Source: Pseudomonas sp. 31-12
Lineage (GTDB): Bacteria; Pseudomonadota; Gammaproteobacteria; Pseudomonadales; Pseudomonadaceae
DNA: 64,000 bases
NCBI RefSeq assembly: GCF_003151075.1
Contig: NZ_CP029482.1
Span: forward strand, 186,001 to 250,000
Direction: 5' to 3'
Part shown: piece after piece, positions 1,257-22,922 of the stretch
Layout: each line of letters opens with the position of its first letter
Position numbering within the stretch: the first letter of the stretch is position 1
The notes under the pieces: generated by a model
Databases searched by the model: none
What the model was told of the DNA's origin: nothing
The model's input: the letters and a program-made list of their open reading frames with translations, nothing else
Translations under genes and position numbers: made by a program

Positions 1257-1262
1257 AGTGTT
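1257..1262. repeat. Candidate left target-site duplication of the attTn7 island (AGTGTT)
   Basis: AGTGTT here recurs at 22917-22922 directly beside the Tn7-like end. Tn7 makes 5-bp duplications, so five of these six bases (GTGTT) could be the duplication. Short matches alone are weak; the value comes from coinciding with the stranded terminator on this side and the transposon end on the other. Confidence 0.5.
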
Positions 1263-1318
1263 GGCGCTGAACAAAACATTTTGACACTAGCAGGTCAGTA
1301 AATACGAGGGCAAACGTA

Positions 1319-1501
1319 TTAACCTGGCACGCAGCCAGGTGGTGTTTTGCCGTTAACGAAGTTGCTCGACGTGTCGCCGGAGGTGCTGGATCTGATTGCC
1401 TGCTCGGCCCCTTGCCAGCCGGCCTGGCGCAAAGCGTAGAGCAAGGTGGCGGCATCCAGCCCCGGCACCGCATGCCCGTTGCCTTCGGAATCATCGAGAT
1501 A
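1319..1501 (-). pseudogene. Unrecognised gene remnant
   Basis: An open minus-strand frame without a good start codon encodes about 60 residues, including HAVPGLDAATLLYALRQAGW and ending in KTPPGCVPG before TAA. The amino acid pattern looks like real protein (an amphipathic helix, then a polar tail), but I do not recognise the family. An in-frame TGA lies immediately upstream, and the neighbouring frame continues upstream, which would fit a frameshifted C-terminal fragment. It is at the left edge of the island. Confidence 0.25.
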
Positions 1502-1958
1502 TCAAACATCCAAGGCTGATGAAGCGTGGGGGGAGATTCGCAGGGGGGCTTATGTCCCGAAATAGTCTTCCGGGCCTGACTAATTCATCATAAACCAACC
1601 AACTCTCTCTCAGAGGCGAGTGGATGGTGGGCAAAGCCGCGAAGGTTGGGGTACCGGCAACTAGTACCGGCCACCCTTTCGGGCGCCCGACGCGACTCCG
1701 CCCATAACGCAGACAACGCGATAATTCACAGAGGCCCTAAGCAATCCCGCTGGATTCACCGACGGGCTTCTTGGTAACAATTCTAGGCTAATCGATATCA
1801 AGTCTTCGTCGAGATTTGATTCAAAAAACATCACTCCCACCCCGATAGGAGCAGTGTTCCATGGTCGGCTACGGGCAAGGCTCAATCAAATTCTTTCCAG
1901 AACACCTCGTCTTCGATAATCCATTACGGGGCCGTGCTATCAAGCAATTCGCGATCTC
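1502..1958. other. Intergenic stretch without recognisable genes
   Basis: About 450 bases between the remnant and the universal stress protein gene. Short open frames exist on both strands but none has a good ribosome site or a familiar protein pattern. A TACCGG string is repeated around 1650-1670. I see no transposon end or RNA gene. Confidence 0.4.
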
Positions 1959-2393
1959 TTATTTGACTAAGGTGATTGGTACTTCTGAGAGCTGAATCAC
2001 CTTAGCCGCGACAGAACCCAGAAAGATCCCCGCCAGAAAACCGTTACCATGGGAACCTAGGATGATGCTGTCACATCCTAGGGATTGCGAGCTCGCCACG
2101 ATTCTGCTGGCAGCATCGCCTTGTAACGTATGGAATGTGAATGCAATGCCTTCTTGTGTCAGAAGCGTCACAGCCTTTTGTGAGTCTTCAGCACTTTTAT
2201 CACCGTAGTAACGATCAATCTCATCCTCGCTCATGTCGTGTGCGATTCGAGTGGGTAAAAGTGGCTGCACATTCACCAGATGTACCTCAACACTCCCGCC
2301 CAGTAATCCGCCATCTTGGATCAGCCCAATAAGGTAACTAACCGCGCGCTCCGAATGCTCGGAACCATCGACAGCTACAAGTATTTTATGCAT
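1959..2393 (-). CDS. Universal stress protein (UspA family)
   Basis: A 144-residue single-domain Usp. It starts MHKILVAVDGSEHSERAV, the usual first strand and nucleotide-loop region, and ends with the ATP-binding signature GSHGNGFLAGIFLGSVAAKV followed by the last strand VPITLV. ATP-binding Usp proteins carry G-2X-G-9X-G(S/T); the spacing here fits. It starts at an ATG with GAGGG upstream and lies 67 bp downstream of the P-type ATPase gene on the same strand, so the two are probably co-transcribed from the Anr-box promoter. Usp proteins support survival under low oxygen and other stresses; the direct partner here is unknown. Confidence 0.9.
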   Translation of the reverse strand: MHKILVAVDGSEHSERAVSYLIGLIQDGGLLGGSVEVHLVNVQPLLPTRIAHDMSEDEIDRYYGDKSAEDSQKAVTLLTQEGIAFTFHTLQGDAASRIVASSQSLGCDSIILGSHGNGFLAGIFLGSVAAKVIQLSEVPITLVK

Positions 2394-2460
2394 TTTCTAA
2401 ACCCTCTTTCAGTGGCATGAAGATGCTTGTCGATAGGGTATGGCCAGCTTGCAATCAGTT

Positions 2461-5193: not shown

Positions 5194-5328
5194 CAATAAT
5201 TATCTCCTGTGCGCACAGCTCAACTGAATCGGGCTGAGGTGGTCATGAGCGAGCGTGGCTATATCAGAATGCTGAAAAATCGTTCGTCGTTCTTACATTC
5301 TCTATGTCATCTAGCTGATACGAACTAA

Positions 5329-5373
5329 AAGATACATGCAACCAATCGCTTGATGATTATTGACTTAAATCAA
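5329..5373 (-). promoter_or_regulatory. Anr/FNR-like box with a downstream promoter for the ATPase-Usp operon
   Basis: On the minus strand 5373-5360 reads TTGATTTAAGTCAA, matching the Anr/FNR consensus TTGAT-N4-ATCAA at 9 of 10 fixed positions. About 30 bases further on lies TATCTT (5334-5329), a possible -10 element, putting the box near -42 to -44 as in class II FNR-type promoters. The ATPase start codon is about 130 bases downstream. Low-oxygen control of the pump and stress protein is inferred. Confidence 0.55.
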
Positions 5374-5554
5374 ATTGTTGGCAGTCGGTAGTGTGACAAG
5401 ATATTTTACTGAGTAAGCTATTCTTCGATCTAAGTTTCTGGTGATTAAGGGTGTCAGCCGCCTGATATTATTGTTTAGTAAGTTCGATCTGTAAGCCTTT
5501 TGAATACCGTTACTGCAATACGTTGATAAATCATTACGTTACAGTCCGCCTATT

Positions 5555-5581
5555 GGTTGCACTCGACGTCAGAGTGCAACC
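5555..5581. repeat. Perfect 10-bp inverted repeat after the LTA-synthase-like gene
   Basis: GGTTGCACTC and its exact complement GAGTGCAACC are separated by seven bases, beginning 12 bases beyond the stop codon of the gene at 5593. It could end that transcript, but no T run follows on either strand, so it is at best an atypical terminator or an RNA-stabilising hairpin. Confidence 0.5.
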
Positions 5582-5592
5582 ATACGGGGTAC

Positions 5593-7803
5593 CTAGCTTG
5601 ATTGAGCACCGCTGTCGACCGGATTCTCATCCAGCACTTCTAGTGCTTCTGGCAACTCGGTAATCACGCTGAAGTCGCTCACCTCAACGGCACCCAATCC
5701 ATAGCCCAACAAGTGGAACGAAAACGCCTTACGCGACTGCGGATTGTCAAAACTGAAGTCCATCTCCAGTGGCTGGTCTGCAGTGACGACCATTTCGGCT
5801 GGCAGGCCCAGTTGGACATCCTGTTCCAGCTCCTTGGCCTTGAGCAGTATGTAGGCGTTCTGTTGTGGATCTACCGAGCGCACGGTCAGACGCACGCGAG
5901 TATGTGAGCCCTTGGGCATTTCCAGGTACTGAGCACCGATAAGGTTATCGGCCCAGTCATCCTTGATCTGCGCCTGAAGCGGGATGATGGCGGGACTGCC
6001 GAACTGGTAGTGCTGGTTCAACGGTGTCCGGAGCAGCGAATGATCCAGTGCCGTCGCTCTGGCTACGATTTGGCGGGCACGCTGGCCCCCATACTGCCCC
6101 GTCAAGGTTGCACGCTCGGCAATGAAGCCGGCGCTGGCGTAATACCGACAGCGCTGTTGAAAGTCACACTCGGTCAAGATGCCTTGGCCATCGTGATAGC
6201 GCAGCTTGTCGTTGGTGAATGACATGATTTCGCGGCCCGTTTCATAATCACGAAACAGGGAACGACCGCTCAAGGCTGAGGGGACGGGTAAGGCGAAGTA
6301 GTCGAGTATCGAGGTACTCAGATCGACATGCCCGTAGACCCCAGACTTCACCCTGGGCAACTGATCCTGCTCGGGCGCTAGCATCAGGTTGAAGCCCCAA
6401 GAGGAAGCCAGGCGCACACCATCTATGCCGTGGGATTCGTCCGAGGTGATCACCAGCAGGGTGTCTTTCAAGATGCCCTGACGTTCCAGGCCGCTGAGGA
6501 ATTGCCCGAGAGCATCATCCAGATACCCGACGGCGGCCTGCTTGGGTGTGTCGTAGCGCTCAAGGTAGTCTTCAGGGGCCGAATAGGGTTGGTGGGTGCC
6601 AACGGTCAGCAGGGTCAGCATCCACGGCGTCTTCTGCTTTTTCAGCTGGCCGACATAGTCCAGCGCCCCTTCGAAGAACGCCTTGTCATCCTTGCCCCAA
6701 GGGAACTCCAGATAGTTGCTATTAGTGAACCATTCCAAGCCATGGGTCGCATCGAAGCCGATGTGCGGCATGATCTTGTCTTTGGCCATGAATCGAAGGC
6801 CTGCACCCTGAAGGTAGTGCGTGGTAAACCCGTTCTTATGCAACTGGGCTGGCAAGCAGGCTTGGTTGCGCTTGCTCTGGGTCAACATTTCGACGCCTTT
6901 GGGCGTGCCGTTATCCAGCTTGTCGTAATCGCCGCAAAGCATCGCGTAAAGGCCGCGAATGGTTTGATGGCTATGCAGTACATAGTCCGGCGTATTCATG
7001 CCGCGCTCTGCCCAACGACTGAGGTTGGGCATGAGGTTTTCTTGATAGCTGCTGTGCAGGGCTTGGCGGTTGACGCCGACGTAAGCGCCGGGAATACCTT
7101 CCAGCGCGATGATCAACACATTGCGCGCACGCCCCGGTGCCGCGAGCAATTTCTGTCCGTCCAAATCGAGTTGAGTGAGCCCCGCCATTTGCGGTGGGAC
7201 ATCGACAACATCACCTTCCAACCACTCTTCTGCGCTTGCCTGAACATCGCCAACGCTCGCGGCCATCAACTGATGCGGGAGGTTGAACAAGCGCCACTGG
7301 TCTTCCTCTGAGGGGTACAGGTGCTGAGCGCCCCAATGGGCGATCAATAGCAGTAGCGGTGCTCCCCACGCGCTTCGTGGCAAGCCCGGAGCGGCAGTGG
7401 AGCGCCCCAGATACTGCGTGATCAGCCAAATCACCAGTCCAAGAAACAGAGTGGCGGCTAGCCAAGGCTGGGCGAAACCACCACCGGTAGAGTTTTCCAA
7501 AAACTGAGGGTCGATCAGGTAGTGCAGGTCTGAGGAGTTTGGAAGTCTACCGACCGCGCTGACCAGTTCGGCAGTCGCCAGCGTCATAAGTCCCCATGCC
7601 AGCAGCACTGGAAGTGCCAACCACCAAGGACGGCGATGCAGGAGTACGATGAGCAGGCTCGCAATTCCCAGATCTGAAAGGTAGCCGAGTGGATTCGACC
7701 AACCCAGTGCCGCACGCATGCACACAGGCACTATCAGAACCAATCCGATCAAAGTGATGAGGCGTGCATAGGGTTGTCGTAACCAGCGACGGATAATGTT
7801 CAC
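5593..7803 (-). CDS. LTA synthase-like membrane sulfatase-fold transferase
   Basis: A 736-residue protein with about five membrane segments in the first 160 residues, then a large extracytoplasmic alkaline-phosphatase/sulfatase-fold domain. Landmarks are NVLIIALEGIPG (first metal-binding strand), HSHQTIRGLYAMLCGDY (likely nucleophile Thr region, as in LtaS and OpgB), GTHQPYSAP, and ITSDESHG (late metal ligands). The family transfers phosphoglycerol or phosphoethanolamine to envelope glycans or lipids. The acceptor here is unknown; osmoregulated glucans are one possibility. A C-terminal domain of about 200 residues beyond the sulfatase fold is predicted beta-rich. Translation starts at GTG 7803 behind GGAAGG. 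It stands alone between the ATPase and nhaA. Confidence 0.75.
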   Translation of the reverse strand: MNIIRRWLRQPYARLITLIGLVLIVPVCMRAALGWSNPLGYLSDLGIASLLIVLLHRRPWWLALPVLLAWGLMTLATAELVSAVGRLPNSSDLHYLIDPQFLENSTGGGFAQPWLAATLFLGLVIWLITQYLGRSTAAPGLPRSAWGAPLLLLIAHWGAQHLYPSEEDQWRLFNLPHQLMAASVGDVQASAEEWLEGDVVDVPPQMAGLTQLDLDGQKLLAAPGRARNVLIIALEGIPGAYVGVNRQALHSSYQENLMPNLSRWAERGMNTPDYVLHSHQTIRGLYAMLCGDYDKLDNGTPKGVEMLTQSKRNQACLPAQLHKNGFTTHYLQGAGLRFMAKDKIMPHIGFDATHGLEWFTNSNYLEFPWGKDDKAFFEGALDYVGQLKKQKTPWMLTLLTVGTHQPYSAPEDYLERYDTPKQAAVGYLDDALGQFLSGLERQGILKDTLLVITSDESHGIDGVRLASSWGFNLMLAPEQDQLPRVKSGVYGHVDLSTSILDYFALPVPSALSGRSLFRDYETGREIMSFTNDKLRYHDGQGILTECDFQQRCRYYASAGFIAERATLTGQYGGQRARQIVARATALDHSLLRTPLNQHYQFGSPAIIPLQAQIKDDWADNLIGAQYLEMPKGSHTRVRLTVRSVDPQQNAYILLKAKELEQDVQLGLPAEMVVTADQPLEMDFSFDNPQSRKAFSFHLLGYGLGAVEVSDFSVITELPEALEVLDENPVDSGAQSS

Positions 7804-8093
7804 AGAGGCCTTCCAGACATTAAATCTTCATACAAGTGTGCTGGATGGTATCAAGCGATGGGAAGACTGATCGGGTTATTCGAAAAGGGCATGGGGTATG
7901 GAGCCGATGGGCGGCATGTATTGTTTCGCATGCCAATAGGTTCTGGTCTAAAACCCCCATTCCAGAGTAATGAATGAACAGCATTAATGCCCGGTTATGG
8001 CCTTGAACATTAACTGTTTCAGGCTGTTTAACGCCGCCATTCGTGTAGGCCAGATGTTAATCTATTACCTTTTAAGTGATCCCAAGGACGTTG

Positions 8094-9290
8094 ATGACCA
8101 AGCATCAAGCTAAAGCCGAAACCCCTAGAGCAGCCGCGATTCTGGCTCGCTTCCTGTCGTCGGAATCCGCTGGCGGTCTCGTGTTGATGGGTGCAGCTCT
8201 GGCCGCTCTGATTGTTGCTAACTCACCTCTATCCCAGAGTTACTTTGCAGCCTTGCACAGCGTTTGGATGGGCATGTCTGTAGAGCATTGGGTGAATGAT
8301 GGTCTGATGGCGATCTTCTTTCTGATGGTCGGTCTAGAAATCAAACGAGAGGTGCTGGCCGGTGGGCTTTCCACGTGGGGGCAGCGTGCCTTACCTGGAT
8401 TTGGTGCTTTGGGCGGCATGGTTGTTCCTGCGCTGATCTACATCGCAATCAACTGGGGTAATCCTGAGACCTTGGGGGGGTGGGCGATCCCGGCCGCTAC
8501 TGACATCGCATTCGCCTTAGGTGTTTTGTCGTTGCTGGGTAAGCGAGTCCCGACTTCGCTGAAAGTGTTTCTGGCTGCCTTGGCGATCATTGACGATCTG
8601 GGCGCGGTGGTGATCATCGCCTTTTTCTATACGTCGGGCCTTTCCATGCCGATGTTGCTGGCCTCGCTTGCGACCCTGGTCATTCTGATCGCAATGAATC
8701 GATTGGGCGTAAGGCGATTGTTCCCGTATCTCCTGGTCGGTGGTGTGCTGTGGTTCTTCGTGCTGCAATCGGGTGTCCATGCCACGCTGGCCGGTGTCGC
8801 TGTGGCGCTGTGCATCCCCATGGGCAAGCCAGAAGAGGAAGCCCGATCTCCGCTGCTTTTCCTGGAAGAGAAGCTGCACATGTGGGTAGCTTTCGCTGTG
8901 GTGCCGATTTTTGGTTTCGCCAACGCGGGTGTTTCATTGGCCGGTATTTCGATGGAGAACCTGGTCGATCCGGTTCCACTGGGTGTCGCTCTGGGGCTGC
9001 TGGTGGGCAAGCAGGTCGGTATTTTCCTATTGGCTGCTATGGCGATTCGTATGGGCCTGGCCAAGCTGCCGGAAGGGAGTACCTGGGTTCAACTCTATGG
9101 CGTAGCACTGTTGTGCGGCATTGGTTTCACTATGAGCCTATTCATTGGCAATCTGGCGTTCGCCGGATCAGCTCTTTTGATTGATGAAGTCAAAGTCGGT
9201 GTATTGATCGGATCGATTCTGGCAGCGTTGGGCGGCGTTATAGTCCTTCGCCGCAGCAGCGTCCTAACGAGTGCTGCCGTAGCCAAATAA
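8094..9290 (+). CDS. nhaA: Na+/H+ antiporter NhaA
   Basis: A 398-residue inner-membrane protein with about 12 membrane segments that exchanges internal Na+ or Li+ for external H+. The NhaA signatures are present: [13 protein letters not shown] (Asp of helix IV, D133 in E. coli numbering) and [15 protein letters not shown] (the D163-D164 pair of helix V). I start at ATG 8094, five bases after AAGGA; a GTG at 8076 in the same frame would make the ribosome site coding and is less likely. A hairpin terminator follows at 9305. In the island it sits between an envelope enzyme and trkH, consistent with a role in salt or pH stress. Confidence 0.95.
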
Positions 9291-9304
9291 TCTCTCTTGA
9301 TATG

Positions 9305-9342
9305 ACCACAGTATTTCTCGAAACCTAGAAATACTGTGGTTT
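9305..9342 (+). terminator. Hairpin terminator after nhaA
   Basis: A perfect 14-bp stem, ACCACAGTATTTCT with its complement, around an eight-base loop, starts 15 bases after the nhaA stop codon and ends in a short TTT. The T run is weak, so termination may be partial. Confidence 0.65.
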
Positions 9343-9390
9343 AGGAACCTGCGTCAGCCACTTAACAACCGATCCTTGTTTGACTGATTG

Positions 9391-9421
9391 CCCGTAGAAA
9401 TTTTACGCAAAATTTACGGGG
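9391..9421 (+). promoter_or_regulatory. Hairpin in the trkH upstream region
   Basis: CCCGTA and AATTTT pair with AAAATT and TACGGG around an ACGC loop, with two unpaired bases in the left arm. It lies about 55 bases before the trkH start codon and has no T run. It may be an operator or a leader hairpin; function is unknown. Confidence 0.35.
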
Positions 9422-9475
9422 CGTGGAGGTTGAGCATTCGATACTGCGCGGCGCTAATTTGGCAGGCTACTTTCT

Positions 9476-10930
9476 ATGTCCCTCGCAGCATTGCGGCTCA
9501 TCGGCTTCATCATAGGCATTTTTTTGATCACGCTGGCCGTAAGCATGGCTATTCCCATGATTACGCTGGTGGCCTATGAGCGTAACGACGATCTGTCGGC
9601 TTTTCTCTGGTCGAGTTTGATTACCTTCATAAGCGGCCTTCTTTTGATCGTGCGTGGGCGTCCTGATACTGGCCAGCTCCGTCCGAGGGATATGTACCTG
9701 TTGACGACTGGCAGTTGGGTGGTGGTGTGTACCTTCGCTGCGTTGCCAATGGTGTTCATCAGCCACATCAGTTACACCGACGCTTTCTTCGAAACAATGT
9801 CCGGCATCACAACCACTGGCTCAACTGTCCTGAGTGGTTTGGATACCGCTTCACCGGGATTGTTGATCTGGCGCTCGATGCTGCACTGGTTGGGTGGGAT
9901 CGGCTTCATCGGCATGGCTGTGGCGATCCTTCCACTGTTGCGAGTGGGTGGCATGCGTCTTTTCCAGACAGAGTCTTCAGACTGGTCGGAGAAAGTGACG
10001 CCGCGTTCCCATGTGGCAGCCAAGTACATCCTCTTTCTCTATCTGGGACTTACTGGCATCGGGGCTCTGGCACTCTGGATCGCTGGGATGACGCCGTTTG
10101 ACGCGGTCAACCACGCAATGTCGTTGATCTCGACTGGCGGATTCTCCACTTCGGACGCCTCGCTTGGGCATTGGACGCAGCCAGCGATTCACTGGGTAGC
10201 GGTGGTCATCATGATTCTGGGCAGCCTGCCTTTTACCTTGTACGTCGCAACTTTGCGCGGCCATAGGCGTGCGCTACTGAAGGATCACCAGGTACGCGGA
10301 TTTCTTGGATTCCTGATTGTCACCTGGCTGGCTGTGGGTACATGGCTATGCTTTCACAGCGACTACGTTTGGTGGGATGCATTTCGTATTGTGGCGGTCA
10401 ACGTGACCTCCGTCGTCACGACCACAGGAGTTGCAGTTGGCGATTACACACTATGGGGTAGTTTTGCCGTTCTGTTTTTCTTCTATCTGACGTTTGTCGG
10501 CGGATGCTCAGGCTCGACGGCTGGCGGACTGAAAATCTTTCGCTTCCAAGTTGCTGCCGCCCTACTCGTGAGTAGTTTGAAGCAGTTGATTCATCCTCGA
10601 GCCGTGATTCAGAAGAAGTACAACGGTCACCCCATTGACGAGGAGATCTTGCGCTCACTTTTAACCTTCTCATTTTTCTTCACCATCACCATTGCGGTAA
10701 TCGCCCTAGGGCTCGCTTTAATCGGACTGGATTGGACGACGGCTTTAAGTGGCGCTGCTACTGCTGTGTGTAACGTTGGGCCAGGCCTGGGCACGATTAT
10801 CGGGCCTGCCGGTAACTTCTCATCACTACCTGATGCAGCAAAATGGTTACTGACCATTGGCATGTTACTGGGGCGGTTGGAAATCCTGACCGTGCTGGTA
10901 CTTATTACGCCAGTCTTTTGGAGGTATTAG
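9476..10930 (+). CDS. trkH: Trk potassium uptake protein, TrkH family
   Basis: A 484-residue inner-membrane K+ translocating subunit, normal for Pseudomonas TrkH. The four pore loops of the M-P-M repeats are visible with their selectivity glycines: TTGSTVL, STGGFSTS, TTTGVAVGDY and NVGPGLG, and the intramembrane gate region GGCSGSTAGGLKIFR is conserved. Working TrkH needs the cytoplasmic NAD/ATP-binding subunit TrkA; none lies in the island, but one is in the core at 57059-58432, so this copy probably borrows it. Start ATG 9476 is preceded by only a poor GGCAGG; no better start is visible. A strong terminator follows at 11074. Confidence 0.95.
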   Translation: MSLAALRLIGFIIGIFLITLAVSMAIPMITLVAYERNDDLSAFLWSSLITFISGLLLIVRGRPDTGQLRPRDMYLLTTGSWVVVCTFAALPMVFISHISYTDAFFETMSGITTTGSTVLSGLDTASPGLLIWRSMLHWLGGIGFIGMAVAILPLLRVGGMRLFQTESSDWSEKVTPRSHVAAKYILFLYLGLTGIGALALWIAGMTPFDAVNHAMSLISTGGFSTSDASLGHWTQPAIHWVAVVIMILGSLPFTLYVATLRGHRRALLKDHQVRGFLGFLIVTWLAVGTWLCFHSDYVWWDAFRIVAVNVTSVVTTTGVAVGDYTLWGSFAVLFFFYLTFVGGCSGSTAGGLKIFRFQVAAALLVSSLKQLIHPRAVIQKKYNGHPIDEEILRSLLTFSFFFTITIAVIALGLALIGLDWTTALSGAATAVCNVGPGLGTIIGPAGNFSSLPDAAKWLLTIGMLLGRLEILTVLVLITPVFWRY

Positions 10931-12291: not shown

Positions 12292-14319
12292 ATGAGCGAA
12301 GATCATCATGGCATAGCCGCCAATCCACGCGACTGGCCTAAGACGCTGTTCTACGTGGCGTTGTTGTTTTCAGTTTTCCAGATTATCACCGCTGCGTTTG
12401 CACCTGTTTCCAGCCAGGTGCTGCGCGCGGTGCACGTTGGTTTCCTGCTGTGGGTGGTGTTTTTAAGTTACCCGGCGTATGGCAGAGCACGTCCTTGGCA
12501 GCCGTTGGCCTGGATATTGAGTCTCGCTGGGATTACCACTGCCTTGTATCAATGGTTCTTCGAGGCGGATTTGATCCAGCGTTCGGGTGACCTGACATCT
12601 GCAGACATGGTGGTTGGGCTGGTATTGATCGCATTGGTGTTTGAGGCGGCTCGTCGGGTGATGGGTATCGCATTGCCCGTCATCTGTGGACTGTTTTTGG
12701 CATACGGTTTATTGGGTGAATACCTGCCAGGCGACTTGGCACATCGAGGCTACGGATTCGATCAAATCGTCAACCAGTTGTCCTTCGGCACCGAAGGTCT
12801 CTACGGGACACCCACCTACGTTTCCGCTACCTATATTTTCCTGTTCATTTTGTTCGGTTCCTTTCTTGAACAGGCCGGCATGATCAAATTGTTCACAGAT
12901 TTCGCGATGGGACTGTTTGGCCACAAACTCGGGGGGCCGGCAAAAGTATCGGTAGCGTCATCGGCTTTGATGGGGACGATTACAGGTTCAGGCATTGCAA
13001 ACGTTGTCACGACAGGACAGTTCACAATTCCATTGATGAAGCGCTTCGGCTACAAGGCAGCATTTGCTGGCGGCGTAGAGGCGACTTCGAGCATGGGCAG
13101 CCAACTGATGCCGCCTGTGATGGGGGCTGTCGCCTTTATTATGGCGGAAACAATTAATGTCCCATTTGTAGAGATCGCTAAAGCTGCGTTAATTCCAGCC
13201 ATCCTGTATTTCGGTTCGGTATTCTGGATGGTTCACCTTGAGGCAAAACGCTCCGACCTTAAAGGGCTACCCAAAGACCAATGTCCCAGCGCATGGGGTG
13301 CGGTAAAGGAAAGCTGGTATTTGCTGATTCCGCTTTTTGTCCTGGTCTACCTGCTGTTTTCCGGACGTACCCCGCTATTCTCCGGAATGGTGGGGCTGGC
13401 GCTAACAGCCATCGTTATTCTCGGTTCGGCAATCATTCTTCGGGTGTCCAGTTTCGCGATGCGGTGTGCGTTCTGGATCGCTCTTGGTGTCCTCTGCGTC
13501 GGTTTTTTCCAGTTGGGTATCAGCGTGATCTTTGCGGTGATCGCCACGTTAGTGGTCATCTGCTGGTTCATTCAGGGAGGCCGAGCAACCCTGAGTATTT
13601 GCCTGCATGCCTTGGTCGAAGGTGCTCGTCATGCTGTGCCGGTCGGGATTGCTTGCGCGCTAGTGGGAATCATCATCGGTGTAGTGTCATTGACGGGCAT
13701 AGCCTCGACCTTCGCCGGTTACATACTGGCCATCGGCAGGGATAACTTGTTGTTGTCACTCATACTGACGATGGTTACCTGCCTGGTGTTGGGTATGGGT
13801 ATCCCGACGATTCCCAACTACATCATCACCAGTTCGATTGCAGCACCCGCTTTGCTTGAGTTGGGTGTGCCGCTGATCGTGTCGCACATGTTTGTTTTCT
13901 ATTTCGGAATTCTTGCAGACCTTACCCCACCGGTTGCCTTGGCATGCTTTGCCGCAGCGCCCATTGCCAAGGAAACAGGATTCAAGATCAGTCTGTGGGC
14001 GGTTCGTATTGCACTGGCAGGCTTCGTCATTCCTTTCATGGCGGTCTACAACCCTGCGCTCATGATGCAAGGCGACAATTTGTGGATGACGGCCTATATG
14101 TTGGTGAAGACGATGTTGGCCGTTGGCCTCTGGGGAATGGCGTCCACAGGTTATCTGCAACAAAAGATGCCGATTTGGGAGCGGTTATTGAGTTTCGCCG
14201 CAGGTGCTTTGTTGGTCGTTGCGCTGCCTTGGACTGACGAAATCGGTTTCGTGCTGGGTGTGTTGATGATACTTCAGCATGTCTGGCGGTCTCGTCGTGC
14301 GGGACTGGCCAAAGCATGA
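12292..14319 (+). CDS. TRAP transporter fused permease (TAXI type, 4TM/12TM)
   Basis: A 675-residue integral membrane protein that fuses the small DctQ-like (first four membrane segments, to about residue 180) and large DctM-like permease subunits. The DctM-type core is recognisable by SALMGTITGSGIANVVTTG, GGVEATSSMGSQLMPPVMGA and the later GMGIPTIPNYIITSS and ADLTPPVALACFAAA repeats. It works with the binding protein encoded upstream. The start ATG at 12292 follows AGGT at a normal distance. The stop codon overlaps the next gene by four bases (ATGA), so the DUF1850 gene is translationally coupled. Confidence 0.95.
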   Translation: MSEDHHGIAANPRDWPKTLFYVALLFSVFQIITAAFAPVSSQVLRAVHVGFLLWVVFLSYPAYGRARPWQPLAWILSLAGITTALYQWFFEADLIQRSGDLTSADMVVGLVLIALVFEAARRVMGIALPVICGLFLAYGLLGEYLPGDLAHRGYGFDQIVNQLSFGTEGLYGTPTYVSATYIFLFILFGSFLEQAGMIKLFTDFAMGLFGHKLGGPAKVSVASSALMGTITGSGIANVVTTGQFTIPLMKRFGYKAAFAGGVEATSSMGSQLMPPVMGAVAFIMAETINVPFVEIAKAALIPAILYFGSVFWMVHLEAKRSDLKGLPKDQCPSAWGAVKESWYLLIPLFVLVYLLFSGRTPLFSGMVGLALTAIVILGSAIILRVSSFAMRCAFWIALGVLCVGFFQLGISVIFAVIATLVVICWFIQGGRATLSICLHALVEGARHAVPVGIACALVGIIIGVVSLTGIASTFAGYILAIGRDNLLLSLILTMVTCLVLGMGIPTIPNYIITSSIAAPALLELGVPLIVSHMFVFYFGILADLTPPVALACFAAAPIAKETGFKISLWAVRIALAGFVIPFMAVYNPALMMQGDNLWMTAYMLVKTMLAVGLWGMASTGYLQQKMPIWERLLSFAAGALLVVALPWTDEIGFVLGVLMILQHVWRSRRAGLAKA

Positions 14320-14714
14320 TGGGCTTGTGCCTGGGTCTGGCCGGCGTCGCCTGGGCTCAACTCCCAATCTCAAGCTTTACACTGGCTTGGAATCACACAA
14401 TTGAAAAAATTCGTTGGGAAGAAGACTACCGCGTCTCGAAACAGGGACTTGTGCTTACTGAGGCCAGGGTCAAAGGGAATGGCGCAGGCATGGAAATTCC
14501 CCCTGAGGCCAGGTTGGAAAAAGGCAGTTGGCACTATCAACGTCACCTGCCGCCCTTGCAGCCTCTGAGTCTGGGACGCACCCCGCAAGCAGGTGACTAC
14601 CAGTTATGCTTCGATCAGCAATGTCATGAGATGAGCGAGTGGCTAGGGCCACCCGTCAGCAATCCGTCCTCAGTGGAGCTATGGAGTTGCTGGACGGACT
14701 CAGGACAACACTAA
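14316..14714 (+). CDS. DUF1850 domain protein of the TAXI-TRAP operon
   Basis: A 132-residue protein, probably exported: the first 14 residues are hydrophobic and end AWA-Q. The rest, beginning FTLAWNHTIEKIRWEEDYRV and containing ARVKGNGAGMEIPPEA, is the DUF1850 pattern, a small domain found almost only beside TAXI-type TRAP genes. Its function is unknown; a periplasmic accessory role in uptake is inferred from linkage. The gene overlaps the permease by four bases. ATG occurs twice in a row at the start (14316 and 14319); the overlap favours the first. The gene converges with dctM. Confidence 0.8.
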   Translation: MMGLCLGLAGVAWAQLPISSFTLAWNHTIEKIRWEEDYRVSKQGLVLTEARVKGNGAGMEIPPEARLEKGSWHYQRHLPPLQPLSLGRTPQAGDYQLCFDQQCHEMSEWLGPPVSNPSSVELWSCWTDSGQH

Positions 14715-14741: not shown

Positions 14742-14780
14742 CCTGTCCGGATACTGACGAACGTCCAGTACCCGGACAGG
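14742..14780. repeat. Inverted repeat between convergent TRAP operons
   Basis: CCTGTCCGG pairs with CCGGACAGG, extended by ACTG/CAGT after a mismatch. It lies exactly between the stops of the DUF1850 gene (plus) and dctM (minus). Neither side has a T run, so a two-way terminator role is uncertain. Confidence 0.5.
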
Positions 14781-14786
14781 CAGGCA

Positions 14787-16699: not shown

Positions 16700-16766
16700 G
16701 GATGGCATCTCCTCTAGCGGATGACAGGCAGGTGCTGCCAGGACGGCAACACCTGTCCTCCACCGA

Positions 16767-17882
<1,116 letters not shown>

Positions 17883-17897
17883 TTAGAAATCTTGTAC

Positions 17898-17932
17898 GTA
17901 ATAAGGTGCTGCCTCTGGAAACAACTTATTAC
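17898..17932. promoter_or_regulatory. Inverted repeat upstream of dctP, possible operator
   Basis: GTAATAAG and CTTATTAC, perfect complements 19 bases apart, lie about 140-170 bases upstream of the dctP start. The arms could bind a dimeric regulator or form a looped hairpin. No regulator gene is adjacent. Confidence 0.3.
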
Positions 17933-18036
17933 AATTAATGTTTGAGACGATTGCGATAAGGGGTAGCGGTTTTAAGAGCCATCTATACCGATGACAATCT
18001 CATCATCGATCAACGCACCACAACAAGGGCACCTAC

Positions 18037-18198
18037 TTAGCTCATGCTCATCGCTTCAGAATAAGAGGGTATATAGGTCAGTTGGCCTTTTTGCCGACGA
18101 CGTCCATTTCGATCGGGAGTCTTAGTAAAAAACACGGAAATTTCTTCGTCCTCCAATGGCTTGAACAACGTTCCGGACTCGTCCTCGGTGATGGTCAT
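18037..18198 (-). CDS. Small unrecognised open reading frame (53 residues)
   Basis: A minus-strand frame starting MTITEDESGTLFKPLEDEE, with FFTKTPDRNGRRRQKGQLTY and ending EAMSMS before TAA. It is rich in charged residues with no membrane segment and looks more like protein than noise, but it has only a weak ribosome site. The frame is closed by a TGA in the upstream repeat (18206-18262). It might be a small gene or the tail of a broken one. I do not recognise the family. It lies between dctP and the two-domain Usp gene. Confidence 0.3.
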   Translation of the reverse strand: MTITEDESGTLFKPLEDEEISVFFTKTPDRNGRRRQKGQLTYIPSYSEAMSMS

Positions 18199-18205
18199 GC
18201 GTAGA

Positions 18206-18262
18206 CCGCCTAAGGGTCAGCTGAAGTCAGCAGCTTGGGTCAAAACCACATCAGCACCAACA
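18206..18262 (-). repeat. Direct repeat copy 1, IS-end-like
   Basis: About 57 bases closely matching 20662-20718 in the same orientation; the first 41 positions differ only at one or two. Read on the minus strand it contains GGTTTTGACCCAAGCTGCTG and starts TGTTGGTGC. The arrangement resembles ends of IS21-like elements, but this is from memory and no transposase is present. It lies 30 bases beyond the stop codon of the Usp gene. Confidence 0.6.
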
Positions 18263-18291
18263 GCCGGCTGCGATAGTGGCGGTTTTTTCGT

Positions 18292-19194
18292 TCAGTGATC
18301 CGCTTCTCCCTTGATGGCCAAAACGCTGCAGGGCACCTGATACAGAACATGCTCCGTGGTACTGCCAATCAGCTTGTCCACCCCTTTGTGATGGGTATTT
18401 CCCATTACGAAGACATCCGCTCGAGTATGAGTCGCAAAGTCGGCCATCGCTTTGGTTGGTGGCCCTGCAATGAAGTGTTGTCGCTCAGGTGGCACGCCGT
18501 AGCGTCCAGCCAAGGCAACGAAGCACTTTTCAAGTGACCGGCGCACATCGTTGCTGAAGCCGGGCATCGTCACGGCGCCAGCACCTGCATCAGAGAAATG
18601 TGTGTGTGTCAGTTCATAGGCATACAGCATGTGCAATTCAGCATCACATTGCGTCGCCAATTCGTTCGCCGCCTGAATGACGCTGTCGTTGATTCCGCTG
18701 ATCTGACCCTCTGGATGCGATGGATCAACCGCCGCCACAATCACCCGAGGAAGCGGACACCTGACTTCGCTGACCAGATGTATGGGGGTCGGACATTCGC
18801 GCAATAGTTGCCAATCCAAAGGCGTGACGAATACGCGTTTGAGCGCTGATTCATGATGTACGTCCTTGATAATCAGGTCCGGCTGCATTTCAGCCACATG
18901 CCCGAGGATCTCTTGCAGCGGGTCACGGGTCAATGCAACTTCGGTGGTCACATTGATGCCCTTCCTGCGCATGAGTTCGGCCTCATCCGTCAACCACTGC
19001 AGGTTCTCCTGCCGGCAACTCTCACGAAGTTGTGCACTGTTGCTCATTAACCGCATAAGGTCGAAGTCTTCGATGAACACCGCAATATGCAGCGCTGCGC
19101 CTGTGGCATCGGCAAGTGCGATTGCCCGCTCCATCGCCGGCGAGTGACGCATGGTTGGACCTGCGATCAGAAAGAGTCGTTGATACTGCCTCAT
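18292..19194 (-). CDS. Two-domain universal stress protein
   Basis: A 300-residue tandem Usp. The first domain (about 1-140) begins MRQYQRLFLIAGPTMRHSPA and has degenerate nucleotide motifs. The second (about 148-297) is better kept, with VIVAAVDPSHPEG and the ATP-loop-like VMGNTHHKGVDKLIGSTTEH, ending VPCSVLAIKG. This is the UspE-like architecture. The start ATG follows GGAGG at six bases. It is flanked by the repeat copy and faces terC across a 387-base gap. A role in stress survival is inferred from the family. Confidence 0.9.
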   Translation of the reverse strand: MRQYQRLFLIAGPTMRHSPAMERAIALADATGAALHIAVFIEDFDLMRLMSNSAQLRESCRQENLQWLTDEAELMRRKGINVTTEVALTRDPLQEILGHVAEMQPDLIIKDVHHESALKRVFVTPLDWQLLRECPTPIHLVSEVRCPLPRVIVAAVDPSHPEGQISGINDSVIQAANELATQCDAELHMLYAYELTHTHFSDAGAGAVTMPGFSNDVRRSLEKCFVALAGRYGVPPERQHFIAGPPTKAMADFATHTRADVFVMGNTHHKGVDKLIGSTTEHVLYQVPCSVLAIKGEADH

Positions 19195-19475
19195 GTGACA
19201 CCTCCAAACGTTCCGGGTTATCCGCTAGCGCCCCCAGCACTCTCGCTTGTCCCACCATTGGCGATCTTTTATCGCCTCAACTACCTGGATCGACACTATC
19301 AATATACGCCTGCATCACCGGCTTACCAGTTGCCAAGCCTGTCGAAGGGTGTAGCAGACCTTTTCATCACGATCGAGCAGGAGACGGGACTGCTGGAGCC
19401 GCGCGCCATGCCACCCGTCTTGAGCACGGAGCAGAACCAATTCGATTGCCGGTAAATGAGTACTTGAATCAATAC
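19195..19475. other. Intergenic stretch upstream of the Usp gene, no gene recognised
   Basis: Frames on both strands run through this region, for example GVADLFITIEQETGLLEPRA on the plus strand, but none has a start with a ribosome site or a pattern I recognise. It must hold the promoter of the divergent Usp gene. Confidence 0.35.
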
Positions 19476-19505
19476 TTCGTAAAAAACGAACTATTCGCAA
19501 CGAAT
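19476..19505. promoter_or_regulatory. Two adjacent palindromes upstream of terC, candidate operators
   Basis: TTCGT-AAAAA-ACGAA (19476-19490) is followed two bases later by ATTCG-CAA-CGAAT (19493-19505). Both are perfect and share the TTCG/CGAA core. They lie 77-106 bases before the terC start codon, in reach of its promoter. They may bind a dimeric repressor; none is encoded next door. Confidence 0.4.
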
Positions 19506-19581
19506 AAACGATTTTTGTTGATGTAACAGGCTCGTTAGCATGACTCCTCCAGCCTATTGCTGCTTCATGCGGAGACAGTAA

Positions 19582-20556
19582 ATGACCGCCATCAGCGTCG
19601 GCCAATCCTGGATGTGGGCCGCCTTCATCGTGTTCGTCCTTGCCATGCTGGCGCTCGATCTGTTCGTCTTCGGCGGACGCAAGGCGCATCGTGTTTCGGT
19701 GCGCGAAGCGCTGGCCTGGGTCATCGCCTGGACCAGTTTGGCGTTGATCTTCGCCGTCCTGCTCTGGTGGTATCTGCGCAGCATGTTCGGCGCCGAAGTG
19801 GCCCAGCGTACAACGCTCGAATTCCTGACGGGCTACCTGATCGAGCAGTCGCTGTCGATCGACAACATGTTCGTTTTCGTGATGATCTTCGGCTACTTCG
19901 CCGTGCCGCCAGAGTTGCAGCGCCGCGTCCTGCTTTATGGCGTGCTGGGCGCCATCATCATGCGGGCCGGTATGATTTTCGCCGGTGTCTGGCTGGTGCA
20001 GGAATTTGCCTGGCTACTCTATGTCTTCGGTGCTTTCCTCGTCATCACCGGCATCAAGATGCTGATCTTCGCCAACCAGCAGCCAGACCTCGAAAAGAAC
20101 CCTTTGCTGCGCTGGATGCGTAGCCATCTTCGCATCACCGACGGCTTTCATGGCGAGCGCTTCTTCGTGCGTCAGAACGGCCTGCTCTGGGCGACGCCGA
20201 TGTTCCTGGTGCTGGTACTGATCGAGGCCAGCGATTTGGTGTTCGCGGTCGATAGCATCCCGGCTATCTTCGCCGTCACCACCGACCCCTTCATCGTGTT
20301 CACCTCCAACATCTTCGCCATCATGGGCCTGCGCGCACTGTATTTTCTGCTTGCCGACATGGCCAACCGCTTCCACTTGCTCAAATATGGCCTGGCCATC
20401 GTACTGGTGTTCATCGGCGGCAAAATGCTGGTCGCGCCGTGGTGGCACATGCCGATCCAATGGTCGCTGACCACAGTCGGCGGCGTCATATTGATTTCGG
20501 TATTGTTGAGCCTGACTTTGACGAAGAGCAAAACACGGGTTATGGGAGAACAATGA
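19582..20556 (+). CDS. TerC/Alx-family integral membrane protein
   Basis: A 324-residue protein with about nine membrane segments and the two TerC signature blocks: EQSLSIDNMFVFVMIF and EASDLVFAVDSIPAIFAVT, whose acidic residues sit inside the membrane and probably bind metal. The Alx/TerC family is linked to tellurite resistance, alkaline pH and Mn2+ export. There are no other ter genes here, so a metal or pH homeostasis role is more likely than tellurite resistance. ATG 19582 follows GGAGAC. The gene sits between two copies of an IS-end-like repeat, which suggests it was acquired separately from the rest of the island. Confidence 0.9.
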   Translation: MTAISVGQSWMWAAFIVFVLAMLALDLFVFGGRKAHRVSVREALAWVIAWTSLALIFAVLLWWYLRSMFGAEVAQRTTLEFLTGYLIEQSLSIDNMFVFVMIFGYFAVPPELQRRVLLYGVLGAIIMRAGMIFAGVWLVQEFAWLLYVFGAFLVITGIKMLIFANQQPDLEKNPLLRWMRSHLRITDGFHGERFFVRQNGLLWATPMFLVLVLIEASDLVFAVDSIPAIFAVTTDPFIVFTSNIFAIMGLRALYFLLADMANRFHLLKYGLAIVLVFIGGKMLVAPWWHMPIQWSLTTVGGVILISVLLSLTLTKSKTRVMGEQ

Positions 20557-20566
20557 TGAATCAGAG

Positions 20567-20719
20567 ATGTTGGCGCTGAGGCGGTTTTGACCCAGGCTAC
20601 CGGAAATCAATGGCCTACCCGAATACTTGGTAATCGATGGTCTAATGCGTGTCTTCACAGGCCGCCTAAGGGGCAGCTGAAGTCAGCAGCTTGGGTCAAA
20701 ACTGCACCTGCACCAACAT
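20567..20719. mobile_element. Short inverted-repeat-bounded relic (IS-end-like)
   Basis: The left edge, from ATGTTGGCGCTGAGGCGGTT into TTGACCCAGGCT, and the complement of the right edge, from ATGTTGGTGCAGGTGCAGTT into TTGACCCAAGCT, match at 27 of 34 positions, so the 153-base segment has terminal inverted repeats. It begins 10 bases after the terC stop codon. The right half is the second copy of the repeat at 18206. It has no coding capacity, as expected for a deleted IS or a small non-autonomous element. Confidence 0.55.
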
Positions 20720-20967
20720 ATATAGATCCGACATCTAGCTAATATCCTATCGGTCGATACACGACTCAGCATCGTCAGGAGTAGCTGTATCGCGGTTTCG
20801 CGCTCTGGATCATTAGGATCAAGAGCGCAGTACGGTGACGCGAGATCTTGGCGAACAGTTTCGGCACTTGCCCTGCATTAACCGCCGCGCCTGCATCGCC
20901 CTTGACTGACTCAACTACGCTTTAAGTGAAGGTTGCAGGCTGCCGAACCCGCAATCAGGAGGGTCCC
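20720..20967. other. Upstream region of the NfeD gene with an unrecognised frame
   Basis: A minus-strand frame here reads VKGDAGAAVNAGQVPKLFAK, then RHRTALLILMIQ, before a stop. It looks protein-like but has no start or known relative that I can name, so it may be a gene fragment. The stretch also has to contain the promoter of the NfeD gene. Confidence 0.25.
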
Positions 20968-22353
20968 ATGAACAGTCGCTGGTGGTGCCGCCTGCTCCTG
21001 CTGATGATACTGGTCGGGTTGCCGATGGGGTCAGTGACGGCTGCGGGCAGCATCGTGGTCCTGACGGTCAACGATGCCATCGGCCCGGCCAATGCCGACT
21101 ACGTCGTGCGGGGCCTGACGCGTGCGGAGACCGAGGGCGCACAGTTGGTGGTCATCAAGCTCGACACCCCCGGCGGGCTGGACACTTCGATGCGCTTGAT
21201 CATCAAGGCGATTCTGGCCAGCCCTCTGCCAGTGGCCAGTTTCGTCGCCCCCAGTGGCGCACGTGCGGCCAGCGCCGGCACCTATATCCTATATGCCAGC
21301 CACGTTGCCGCCATGACCCCGGGCACCAATCTGGGCGCCGCTACGCCGGTGCAGATCGGCGGCCTGCCCGGGACCGCGCCAGATCCACCGCGCCCACCAG
21401 CGGCACCTGCCACCGACAAAAACTCACCGCCCGAGCCGCTGGATACCCTGGCTCGCAAACAGATCAACGATGCAGCGGCTTACATCCGCGGCCTAGCGCA
21501 ACTGCGCGGACGTAACGCCGACTGGGCCGAACAAGCGGTACGTGAATCGCTCAGCCTGTCGGCCGACGAAGCGCTCAAACTCAAGGTGGTCGATTATGTG
21601 GCCAATGACGTAGCGGACCTGCTCAAGCAACTGGACGGTAAGAGCCTGAATGTCGCCGGTCAGACGTTGAAGCTGAGTACCGCCGGGGCTGCACTCATCG
21701 ATCATGCGCCTGATTGGCGCACACAACTGCTGGCGGTGATCACCAACCCCAGCGTGGCATTGCTGCTGATCATGTTCGGGGTCTATGGGTTGATATTCGA
21801 ATTCATGAACCCAGGGTCAGGTGTCGGTGGAGTACTCGGTGGTATCTGCCTGTTGCTGGGGTTGTATGCCCTGCAACTGTTGCCCGTGAATTACGCCGGG
21901 GTCGGACTGATTCTGCTAGGGCTCGCCTTCATGATCGCCGAGGCGTTTCTACCGAGTTTCGGTGTAATCGGCTTCGGTGGGGTGGTTGCTTTTGTAGTGG
22001 GCGCAGTGATTTTGATGGACACCGATGTACCGGGCTTCGGCATTCCGTTGGCGCTGATCATCGGCATGGCACTGATCAGCGCCCTGTTGCTAATGACTCT
22101 GGTCGGCATGGCGCTCAAGGCCCGACGCCGTGCCTTGGTCAGCGGCGATGCGGGCTTGGTTGGCAGCCTGGCCACGGTGACGGGGCTGCTGCCGGGTCTG
22201 CCGATGAGCGGCTGGGTGCAACTGCAGGGCGAAAAATGGCAAGTTCAGAGCCGCTCGCCTCTGCACCTGGGCCAACAGGTCCGGGTGGTGGCACGCACGG
22301 GCGTGAAGCTGGACGTCATTGCACCGGATGAAACGCCACCGCGAGGAGGTTGA
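20968..22353 (+). CDS. NfeD-family membrane protein with ClpP-like serine protease domain
   Basis: A 461-residue protein: signal peptide to about residue 26, a ClpP-like protease domain (about 30-230) with DTPGGLDTSMRLII and PSGARAASAGTYILYASH (catalytic Ser region), then four membrane segments and a C-terminal OB-fold NfeD domain. This is the long NfeD1b type, which cleaves and regulates a membrane stomatin or slipin encoded beside it. ATG 20968 follows AGGAGGG, a strong ribosome site. The partner gene follows after three bases but is badly truncated inside, so the pair probably no longer works as such. Confidence 0.88.
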   Translation: MNSRWWCRLLLLMILVGLPMGSVTAAGSIVVLTVNDAIGPANADYVVRGLTRAETEGAQLVVIKLDTPGGLDTSMRLIIKAILASPLPVASFVAPSGARAASAGTYILYASHVAAMTPGTNLGAATPVQIGGLPGTAPDPPRPPAAPATDKNSPPEPLDTLARKQINDAAAYIRGLAQLRGRNADWAEQAVRESLSLSADEALKLKVVDYVANDVADLLKQLDGKSLNVAGQTLKLSTAGAALIDHAPDWRTQLLAVITNPSVALLLIMFGVYGLIFEFMNPGSGVGGVLGGICLLLGLYALQLLPVNYAGVGLILLGLAFMIAEAFLPSFGVIGFGGVVAFVVGAVILMDTDVPGFGIPLALIIGMALISALLLMTLVGMALKARRRALVSGDAGLVGSLATVTGLLPGLPMSGWVQLQGEKWQVQSRSPLHLGQQVRVVARTGVKLDVIAPDETPPRGG

Positions 22354-22356
22354 TCC

Positions 22357-22644
22357 ATGTTCGTCGAATTGGGTTTTGGCGCGCTGCTCGCCTTGCTCCT
22401 CATCGCCAAGCAAGCCGAGGCTGAGCGTGAACGGCGGGCCAAGGTGATACACGCCGAAGGTGAATTGCAGGCTTCGGAGAAGCTCATGCAGGCCGCCGAG
22501 ATGCTTGGGCGCCAGCCTGGTGCCATGCAACTGCGCTATATGCAGACACTGGGTGCAATCGCTGGGGACAAGAGCTCGACCATTGTATTTCCGTTGCCGA
22601 TTGAGTTTTTGAAAGGAATGGCCGATTTGTCGCAAAAGAAATGA
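22357..22644 (+). CDS. Slipin (SPFH/band-7) with a large in-frame internal deletion
   Basis: Only 95 residues, against roughly 250 for intact slipins. The first 17 residues ([17 protein letters not shown]) are the usual membrane anchor, but the sequence then jumps straight to the C-terminal helix [20 protein letters not shown] and the conserved tail [17 protein letters not shown]. The whole band-7 domain, about 150-160 residues, is missing, yet frame, start codon and ribosome site (GAGGAGG) are intact. A retained anchor plus coiled tail might still make a stable peptide, but loss of function is more likely. It follows the NfeD gene by three bases, as in the normal pair. Confidence 0.8.
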
Positions 22645-22649
22645 CCAAC

Positions 22650-22823
22650 ACCGGTGTAGCATCCAATGCGGCAGCTCGAGAACCATCTCGTTCAGCATGA
22701 AGTGCTGAAGGTGCTTGGCCCCCTGACGGACCGACTCTGGAACAGACTGGTCTCTCGCCAAGTCGCGCAAACAATCACCCGTTTGAATAATGCTACGAGT
22801 AAGTTCATGGGGCGTTTGAGGTT
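22650..22823 (-). pseudogene. Fragment resembling the BPSL0761-family small protein
   Basis: The minus strand reads TPHELTRSIIQTGDCLRDLA, then RDQSVPESVRQGAKHLQHF, with no ATG at the expected place and no stop before it runs into the slipin gene. Small BPSL0761-family proteins typically have an ERTR...FL..L...P..VR..A..LLRH pattern, which this follows. I take it as a broken copy, from memory of the family. It lies between the slipin gene and the Tn7-like end. Confidence 0.35.
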
Positions 22824-22873
22824 GGTCGCGGAGACTAAGGGAGGGTCGCCTGTAAGCGACCTCCCGATCGTGA

Positions 22874-22917
22874 GACAGTTTTCATTATCGCTGGACAGAC
22901 TTTATTGTCTGAAAGCA
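22874..22917 (-). mobile_element. Tn7-like transposon right end
   Basis: On the minus strand, from 22917, the sequence is TGCTTTCA followed by GACAATAAAGTCT. The Tn7 right end is TGTGGGCG followed by GACAATAAAGTCT: the same first two bases, the same eight-base spacing and the same TnsB-binding core. A degenerate second site, GCGATAATGAAAACTGTC, follows at 22891-22874. The end begins 23 bases behind the glmS stop codon, exactly where Tn7 inserts. The third base is C rather than T, so the end may be damaged. Confidence 0.75.
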
Positions 22918-22922
22918 GTGTT
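22917..22922. repeat. Candidate right target-site duplication (AGTGTT)
   Basis: Matches 1257-1262 at the other boundary of the island. It overlaps the last base of the Tn7-like end by one position, so the duplicated 5-mer is probably GTGTT. Confidence 0.5.

What the first reader, a model, noticed from the sequence alone, without database searches (positions are those of the whole stretch)
1257..22922. A 21.7-kb accessory island sits in the attTn7 site behind glmS
Three signs agree: a Tn7-like end 23 bp behind the glmS stop codon; AGTGTT at both edges; and a terminator oriented for glmS stranded on the far side. The content is accessory, and the transposition genes are missing. The ancestral locus can be rebuilt as glmS, GTGTT, terminator, LysR.
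Basis: partly seen in the sequence, partly recalled or inferred. Interest (0 to 1): 0.75.

Follow-up and report, generated by a model that had tools for sequence, protein, structure and literature searches.

The report
Stranded Tn7-like island behind glmS
In this Pseudomonas chromosome a 21.7-kb block of transporter and stress genes sits in the standard landing site of Tn7 transposons, flanked by worn Tn7-type ends that best fit two different types and with no recognisable transposition gene, so it is likely the leftover of neighbouring Tn7-like elements that fused and became stuck.

Summary
Of 149 Pseudomonas genomes, 44 have a LysR match downstream of glmS: 15 with only 74-121 bp between them, 29 (this one included) with 1.4-64 kb inserted. 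All 14 short sites read (of 15) show glmS stop, 26-31 nt, an ATCGCAGC hairpin, LysR; the window's flanks with one ACACT give 28 nt. Genome G005 has identical flanks around another Tn7-like element that carries tnsABCD.

Both edges carry inward-facing TnsB-type sites, ranks 1 and 2 of 127,968 positions with two of the site models. The left edge equals a known end type with 181 bp missing. The right edge best fits a different type. I infer a collapsed tandem array that can no longer move. For it: ends match in 6 of 6 blocks with tns genes, and mixed neighbours occur in G086 and G058. Against a general rule: blocks without an intact tns set split three differing (one weakly) to three matching.

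The cargo (two Usp, Ca2+-type ATPase, NhaA, TrkH, two TRAP systems, TerC/Alx, NfeD) is intact apart from a cut-down slipin, shows low dN/dS, and recurs elsewhere in changed order. It holds the only DctP found in the genome. Tn7-derived islands are a known kind; the mismatched ends are the new part.

The parts
1225..1256 (-). glmS-directed terminator-like hairpin, now on the far side of the island next to LysR
   Evidence: hairpin -18.1 kcal/mol; a like hairpin between glmS and LysR in 14 of 14 short sites read
1257..1261 (.). 5-bp flanking repeat AGTGT (ACACT in glmS direction), LysR side
   Evidence: the same 5 bp flank the element in G005
1262..1332 (+). left end: terminus TGGCGC joined to the fourth inner TnsB-type site (site at 1271-1287); 181 bp missing relative to G086
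   Evidence: site rank 1 of 127,968 with A and A+T models; 49 of 66 identical to the fourth-site zone of G086, next best 32
1623..1709 (-). C4 antisense RNA family match in the left flank of the cargo
   Evidence: Rfam RF01695, 45.6 bits against gathering score 45
1959..2393 (-). universal stress protein (Usp)
   Evidence: PF00582
2461..5196 (-). type II P-type cation ATPase, nearest to Ca2+ pumps
   Evidence: Pfam; TIGR01522 best but below its cut-off; PDB Ca2+ ATPases E 1e-171
5593..7803 (-). sulfatase-fold membrane protein, lipoteichoic acid synthase-like
   Evidence: PF00884; PDB matches
8076..9290 (+). NhaA Na+/H+ antiporter
   Evidence: PF06965; TIGR00773 over cut-off
9476..10930 (+). 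TrkH-family K+ uptake protein
   Evidence: PF02386
11257..12210 (+). TAXI-type TRAP solute-binding protein
   Evidence: PF16868
12292..14319 (+). fused TRAP permease
   Evidence: TIGR02123 over cut-off
14316..14714 (+). DUF1850 protein
   Evidence: PF08905
14787..16070 (-). DctM TRAP large permease
   Evidence: PF06808
16067..16708 (-). DctQ TRAP small permease
   Evidence: PF04290
16767..17756 (-). DctP binding protein, C4-dicarboxylate type; only DctP found in this genome
   Evidence: PDB DctP E 8e-169; single genomic match at E 1e-30
18203..18262 (.). half copy of a repeat element beside usp2
18292..19194 (-). UspE-like double universal stress protein
   Evidence: PF00582; UspE model below its cut-off
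19582..20556 (+). TerC/Alx family metal homeostasis membrane protein
   Evidence: TIGR03718 over cut-off
20567..20719 (.). about 150-bp element with 32-nt inverted arms
20926..22353 (+). NfeD1b membrane protein
   Evidence: PF24961, PF25145, PF01957
22357..22644 (+). slipin remnant of 95 aa, in-frame deletion of the middle
   Evidence: alignment to a 252-aa slipin of G203
22839..22865 (-). hairpin without T run just inside the right end
   Evidence: -21.3 kcal/mol for 22820-22880, z -2.6; no canonical terminator found
22872..22916 (-). right end: two TnsB-type sites 20 bp apart (22892-22908, 22872-22888), best fit to the C end type
22917..22921 (.). 5-bp flanking repeat AGTGT (ACACT), glmS side

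Best explanation
The 21.7-kb block at 1262-22916 sits in the glmS attachment site between two ACACT repeats, carries Tn7-type ends that best fit two different types and no recognisable transposition gene, and is likely the remnant of a tandem Tn7-like array that collapsed by deletion. Shown: site, repeat, displaced terminator, end sites, no tns homolog found, end-type mismatch under my site models. Inferred steps: an A-type element inserted first, beside the terminator; a second element with a C-type right end inserted at the same position on the glmS side, copying the same 5 bp; a deletion from inside one into the other removed both inner ends and all tns genes; a further 181-bp deletion in the left end removed three of its four sites. 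What remained would not be paired by either transposase and is predicted to be fixed. The cargo, predicted to serve Na+, K+, Ca2+ and Mn2+ balance and dicarboxylate uptake, appears to be kept by selection (pairwise dN/dS 0-0.18).
For: Short sites in 15 of 44 glmS-LysR pairs; 14 of 14 read have the hairpin at 26-31 nt, and the window counts 28 nt with one repeat. G005 shares 24 nt after the stop and 75 nt from the repeat into LysR, letter for letter, around an element with TnsA, B-, C-, D- and TniQ-type genes. Edge sites rank 1 and 2 of 127,968 with the A and A+T models. Left edge: 49 of 66 identical to a fourth-site zone, next best 32 among 127,868; its core occurs in 7 of 398 genomes, this one included, and the seven copies outside this genome are all fourth sites of four-site left ends. 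Right edge: second site rank 1 with the C model, left site rank 1799 with it. Ends match in 6 of 6 blocks that hold tns genes. T-type beside A-type in G086 and C-type beside A-type in G058, seen directly. No tns match in the window with A-type or C-type queries.
Against: Blocks without an intact tns set do not all differ: window, G127 and (weakly, right end 11.7 bits) G134 differ, but G099 (T/T), the glmS-proximal block of G086 (A/A) and the first block of G078 (C/C) match; 3 of 6 against 0 of 6 is not significant (Fisher p 0.18). The tns-bearing loci trained the models, so their 6 of 6 is partly circular; the C model has 5 sites from G002 and G134. Right site 1 scores 14.0 with T and 11.3-11.5 with A; with all 32 sites pooled the left site falls to rank 5. 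G136 shows only a right end, G021 only a left end, and most occupied loci show neither. The repeat register is open by one base. No internal relic end was found above 16 bits.
Confidence: 0.55

Rival explanations
1. One ancient Tn7-like element inserted once, lost its tns genes, and its two ends drifted apart in sequence.
For: Exact site, 5-bp repeat and inward sites need only one insertion. Right site 1 also ranks 2 with the A model (11.5 bits). Three other blocks without tns genes have matching ends, so simple loss of tns genes does happen.
Against: Right site 2 ranks 40 with the A model but 1 with the C model; the left site ranks 1799 with C. G127 shows the same kind of mismatch at high scores (18.6 C, 23.7 A).
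Confidence: 0.3
2. Accretion: a small decayed Tn7-like remnant sat in the site and the cargo came later by homologous recombination or nested elements.
For: Cargo genes have unequal divergence from the copies compared (dS 0.08-0.77), recur at other loci in other order, and repeat elements flank usp2-terC.
Against: G366 keeps much of the same gene order at another place, with the TAXI block inverted, so the set tends to travel together; nothing dates the cargo after the ends.
Confidence: 0.1
3. The block is ancestral and was lost from relatives.
For: A sulfatase-like relative is found between glmS and LysR in five other genomes, G039, G111, G124, G010, G123.
Against: That copy is 69-73% identical in protein and divergent from LysR; short sites, the repeat and the transposon ends all point to gain. 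In the inserts fetched by then one search found no other island protein except a 33% TerC match in G107; a middle part of the G005 insert later added a 31% ATPase match.
Confidence: 0.03
4. An integrase-type genomic island or prophage that happens to lie behind glmS.
For: None found.
Against: No integrase or phage family among the 15 island ORFs scanned with Pfam; edges fit Tn7-type ends.
Confidence: 0.02

Closest known systems
Tn7 and Tn7-like elements in attTn7 (for example the G005 element read here)
   Same: Position behind glmS, 5-bp repeat, right end next to glmS, inward TnsB-type sites at both edges
   Different: No tnsABCD found; left end lacks three of four sites; the two ends best fit different types
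Tn7-derived genomic islands (Parks and Peters 2007, 2009; Peters 2014: content recalled; titles seen in reference lists)
   Same: Accessory cargo parked in attTn7
   Different: I have no paper in hand that describes mismatched ends or collapsed mixed arrays
tnsABCD with heavy-metal genes in Pseudomonas putida KT2440 and W619 (PMC3056050, passages)
   Same: Same genus, Tn7-family genes beside stress cargo
   Different: There tns genes are present and the cargo is metal resistance
Transmissible locus of stress tolerance (recalled, no call)
   Same: Stress and ion genes moving as a block
   Different: None of its recalled hallmark genes (small heat shock proteins, ClpK, FtsH, YfdX, HdeD) appears among the Pfam matches of the 15 ORFs

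Membership tests
Functional Tn7-like transposon | Insertion at the glmS attachment site | tested here: met
   repeat 20-24 nt behind the stop; 14 of 14 short sites read
Functional Tn7-like transposon | 5-bp target repeat (stated for Tn7 in PMC6360697, passage) | tested here: met
   ACACT at both edges, as in G005; register open by one base
Functional Tn7-like transposon | Arrays of TnsB-type sites at both ends | tested here: inconclusive
   two at the right, one at the left where related ends have four
Functional Tn7-like transposon | tnsABC with a targeting gene | tested here: not met
   no match below E 0.31 (A-type queries) or 0.70 (C-type queries) in 1-25000; one partial TniQ match in the genome, 31 bits, over the 27-bit cut-off, about 3.2 Mb away
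Tn7-derived genomic island (remnant) | Accessory genes between Tn7-type edges in attTn7, absent from relatives | tested here: met
Integrase-type genomic island | Tyrosine or serine recombinase gene | tested here: not met
   15 of 15 island ORFs scanned with Pfam, none
Anti-phage defence island | Known defence proteins | tested here: inconclusive
   no PADLOC match in the 10 of 15 ORFs scanned; five not scanned

The most novel reading that the evidence does not exclude
Different Tn7-like families stack in tandem behind glmS in Pseudomonas, and deletions across the stack leave chimeric-ended, immobile blocks that lock transposon cargo into the chromosome; the window's island, with the only DctP found in its genome, is one such locked block.
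Probability: 0.42. Interest if true: 0.6.

Novelty: new member of a known kind. Interest (0 to 1): 0.43.

Why it matters
Islands in attTn7 without tns genes can be put down to simple decay. The end types suggest a second route: arrays of unrelated Tn7-like elements share one landing site and one 5-bp repeat, so a deletion between neighbours leaves clean-looking edges that no single transposase would be expected to pair. That would turn mobile cargo into resident genes, here including the only DctP found in the genome. It also gives a test that needs only sequence: compare the two end types of every tns-less attTn7 island.

Tried and rejected
A first site model from strings that I read off loci by eye, some padded by one letter (used again in the G086 scan), was replaced by sites collected by rule. 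A regular expression missed most sites and its T model was empty; that output was not used. I first took the left edge for a complete terminus and considered an IS21-like end, because TGTTGGCGCTGA also begins the repeat at 20567 (the IS21 label is recalled); one search showed that it is the fourth inner site of a known left end. I first read the right edge as having lost one base; G002 reads the same way, but its flank repeat is ambiguous, and so is the G058 junction, so I claim neither. Plasmids: the left flank had no match; the whole island gave 9 records with at most 8% of the query covered. A search for papers holding at least 4 of 6 cargo terms found none. The large DNA search left 125 of 398 genomes unscored; the NfeD piece was then searched in all 398. 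L158 and L163-L164 were fetched but not analysed. Structure prediction was not used.

Full report
The locus. The window lies in a one-contig genome of 6.73 Mb; its near relatives by NfeD are named Pseudomonas. glmS is at 22941-24776 (-) and the LysR gene at 299-1204 (-); both read the same way. Between them lie 21.7 kb with 15 ORFs. AGTGTT stands at both edges (1257-1262, 22917-22922).

Empty sites. I searched glmS and the LysR protein in 149 genomes of the genus, this one included. glmS is in 149 of 149; a LysR match at E 1e-100 is in 80 of 149. Counting by hand from those tables, 44 genomes have a LysR match (72-100% identity) downstream of glmS, same strand, same contig, within 100 kb: 15 with a gap of 74-121 bp and 29, this one included, with 1.4-64 kb. 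I fetched 14 of the 15 short sites; G081 was not read. In 14 of 14 the glmS stop is followed at 26-31 nt by an ATCGCAGC hairpin and then LysR. The window counts 28 nt with one copy of the repeat. In G005 the 24 nt after the stop and 75 nt from the repeat into LysR are identical to the window, and the repeat flanks an element with TnsA, TnsB-type, TnsC-type, TnsD and TniQ genes. In four genomes (G052, G082, G113, G099) a conserved 6-kb block lies next to LysR instead; G052 and G099 are the nearest by glmS. So the site is a hot spot with several histories.

Edges. I collected TnsB-type sites by rule and built models: A (15 unique sites from G005, G130, G086), T (13 from G046, G106, G086, G099), C (5 from G002 and one end of G134). 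In the 64-kb window, 127,968 positions on both strands, the A+T model puts the left site (1271) first and the right site (22892) second. With A without the fourth-site copy, ranks are 1 and 2; with T, left 13, right 2 and 3; with C, left 1799, right 15 and 1; with all pooled, left 5, right 1 and 2. The right edge has two sites 20 bp apart, and this pair ranks first of 127,928 with the A, T and A+T models.

The left end. The 22-nt core of the left site, with up to two mismatches, occurs in 7 of 398 genomes, this one included; the reversed control pattern gave no hit in the rows shown. The seven copies outside this genome, in six genomes, are all the fourth and innermost site of a left end with four sites at near-constant spacing. 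In the window the same zone (49 of 66 identical; next best 32) follows directly after TGGCGC, the terminus seen in G086. I read that as a deletion of 181 bp that took sites 1-3.

Two end types. The hairpin next to LysR was found in 10 of 29. Blocks with tns genes: G005, G130 and G046 (tnsABC plus TnsD or TniQ), G106 (TnsA and TniQ/TnsD type only), G002 (a divergent set: TnsD, TniQ, a weak AAA match, a TnsB match of 22%) and the T block of G086; their right and left ends are of one type in 6 of 6. Blocks in which I found no intact set and saw both ends: the window, G127 and G134 differ (G134 weakly; it keeps a 114-aa TnsA-like stretch), while G099 (T/T), the glmS-proximal block of G086 (A/A) and the first block of G078 (C/C; a second C/C block may follow) match. 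Three of six against none of six is not significant (Fisher p 0.18), and the tns-bearing loci helped to train the models. So mismatch is not the rule for tns-less blocks; it is a property of this one and of G127, weakly of G134. Mixed neighbours are seen directly: in G086 a T-type right end abuts an A-type left end, in G058 a C-type right end abuts an A-type left end. From the window's own mismatch and these arrays I infer a collapsed tandem array. The repeat does not argue against it, since each insertion at the same position would copy the same 5 bp.

Transposition genes. The five A-type Tns proteins of G005 find nothing in window 1-25000 below E 0.31, the five C-type proteins of G002 nothing below E 0.70. 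TniQ in this genome gives one partial match (31 bits, cut-off 27) about 3.2 Mb away.

Cargo. Pfam, NCBIfam and PDB comparisons give two universal stress proteins, a Ca2+-type P-ATPase, a sulfatase-fold membrane protein, NhaA, TrkH, a TAXI-type TRAP system with DUF1850, a DctPQM system, TerC/Alx, NfeD and a slipin cut down in frame to 95 aa (252 aa in G203). PADLOC found no defence gene in the 10 ORFs scanned. Against one chosen copy each elsewhere the 14 uncut genes have dN/dS of 0 to 0.18, with dS from 0.08 to 0.77, so the genes look kept but have unequal histories. The DctP is the only one in the genome at E 1e-30; NhaA has a second copy at 56%.

The same genes elsewhere. Modules recur away from glmS: TAXI to TerC in G086 (95-97%), TAXI to DctP plus the sulfatase-like gene in G005 (95% and 86%), USP1 to DctM plus NfeD in Pseudomonas sp. 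QTF5, where NfeD is followed by a ligD-like start, and USP1, ATPase, NhaA, TAXI set, DctMQP and NfeD in G366. The 5.6 kb read at the ligD locus of the window's own genome have no such insert. The gene set thus tends to travel, and Tn7-type parking is one of its routes; this last point is inference.

Function. From family knowledge, NhaA, TrkH, a Ca2+-type pump and TerC/Alx point to ion and pH balance, and DctPQM to C4-dicarboxylate uptake. No function was tested.

Literature. I saw passages of PMC11406308, PMC10293859, PMC3056050, PMC8649781 and PMC6360697 and search listings. PMC6360697 states the 5-bp repeat and TnsB sites at Tn7 ends. In these listings and passages I found no account of mismatched ends or collapsed mixed arrays; most subscription literature is not in the library searched.

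Noticed in passing
window 20567-20719 and 18203-18262: A 150-bp element with 32-nt inverted arms and a half copy flank usp2-terC; related copies lie beside the same module in G210, G130 and G086.
   Followed up: partly
window 1623-1709 (-): C4 antisense RNA match just over the gathering score; similarity to the QTF5 island stops at 1626.
   Followed up: no
window 22357-22644: Slipin gene with an in-frame deletion of its middle, still open; NfeD copies at 90-94% elsewhere also lose similarity at or before the start of the slipin.
   Followed up: partly
window 1187-1261 and L049: G005 matches 75 nt from the repeat into LysR without a difference although its LysR protein is only 85% identical, which hints at local exchange.
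   Followed up: no
L033-L037: A relative (69-73% in protein) of the island's sulfatase-like gene stands divergent to LysR behind glmS in five other genomes.
   Followed up: no
L024, L025, L026, L028: A conserved 6-kb block between glmS and LysR in four genomes, two of them the nearest by glmS; in G099 what looks like an arsenic island with T-type ends and no tns match precedes it (gene labels from translation starts, not from a family search).
   Followed up: partly
L062, L161, L162: G086 carries at least three stacked Tn7-like blocks of two end types behind glmS.
   Followed up: partly
L039: G078 shows several short blocks bounded by C-type ends behind glmS without a tns match.
   Followed up: no
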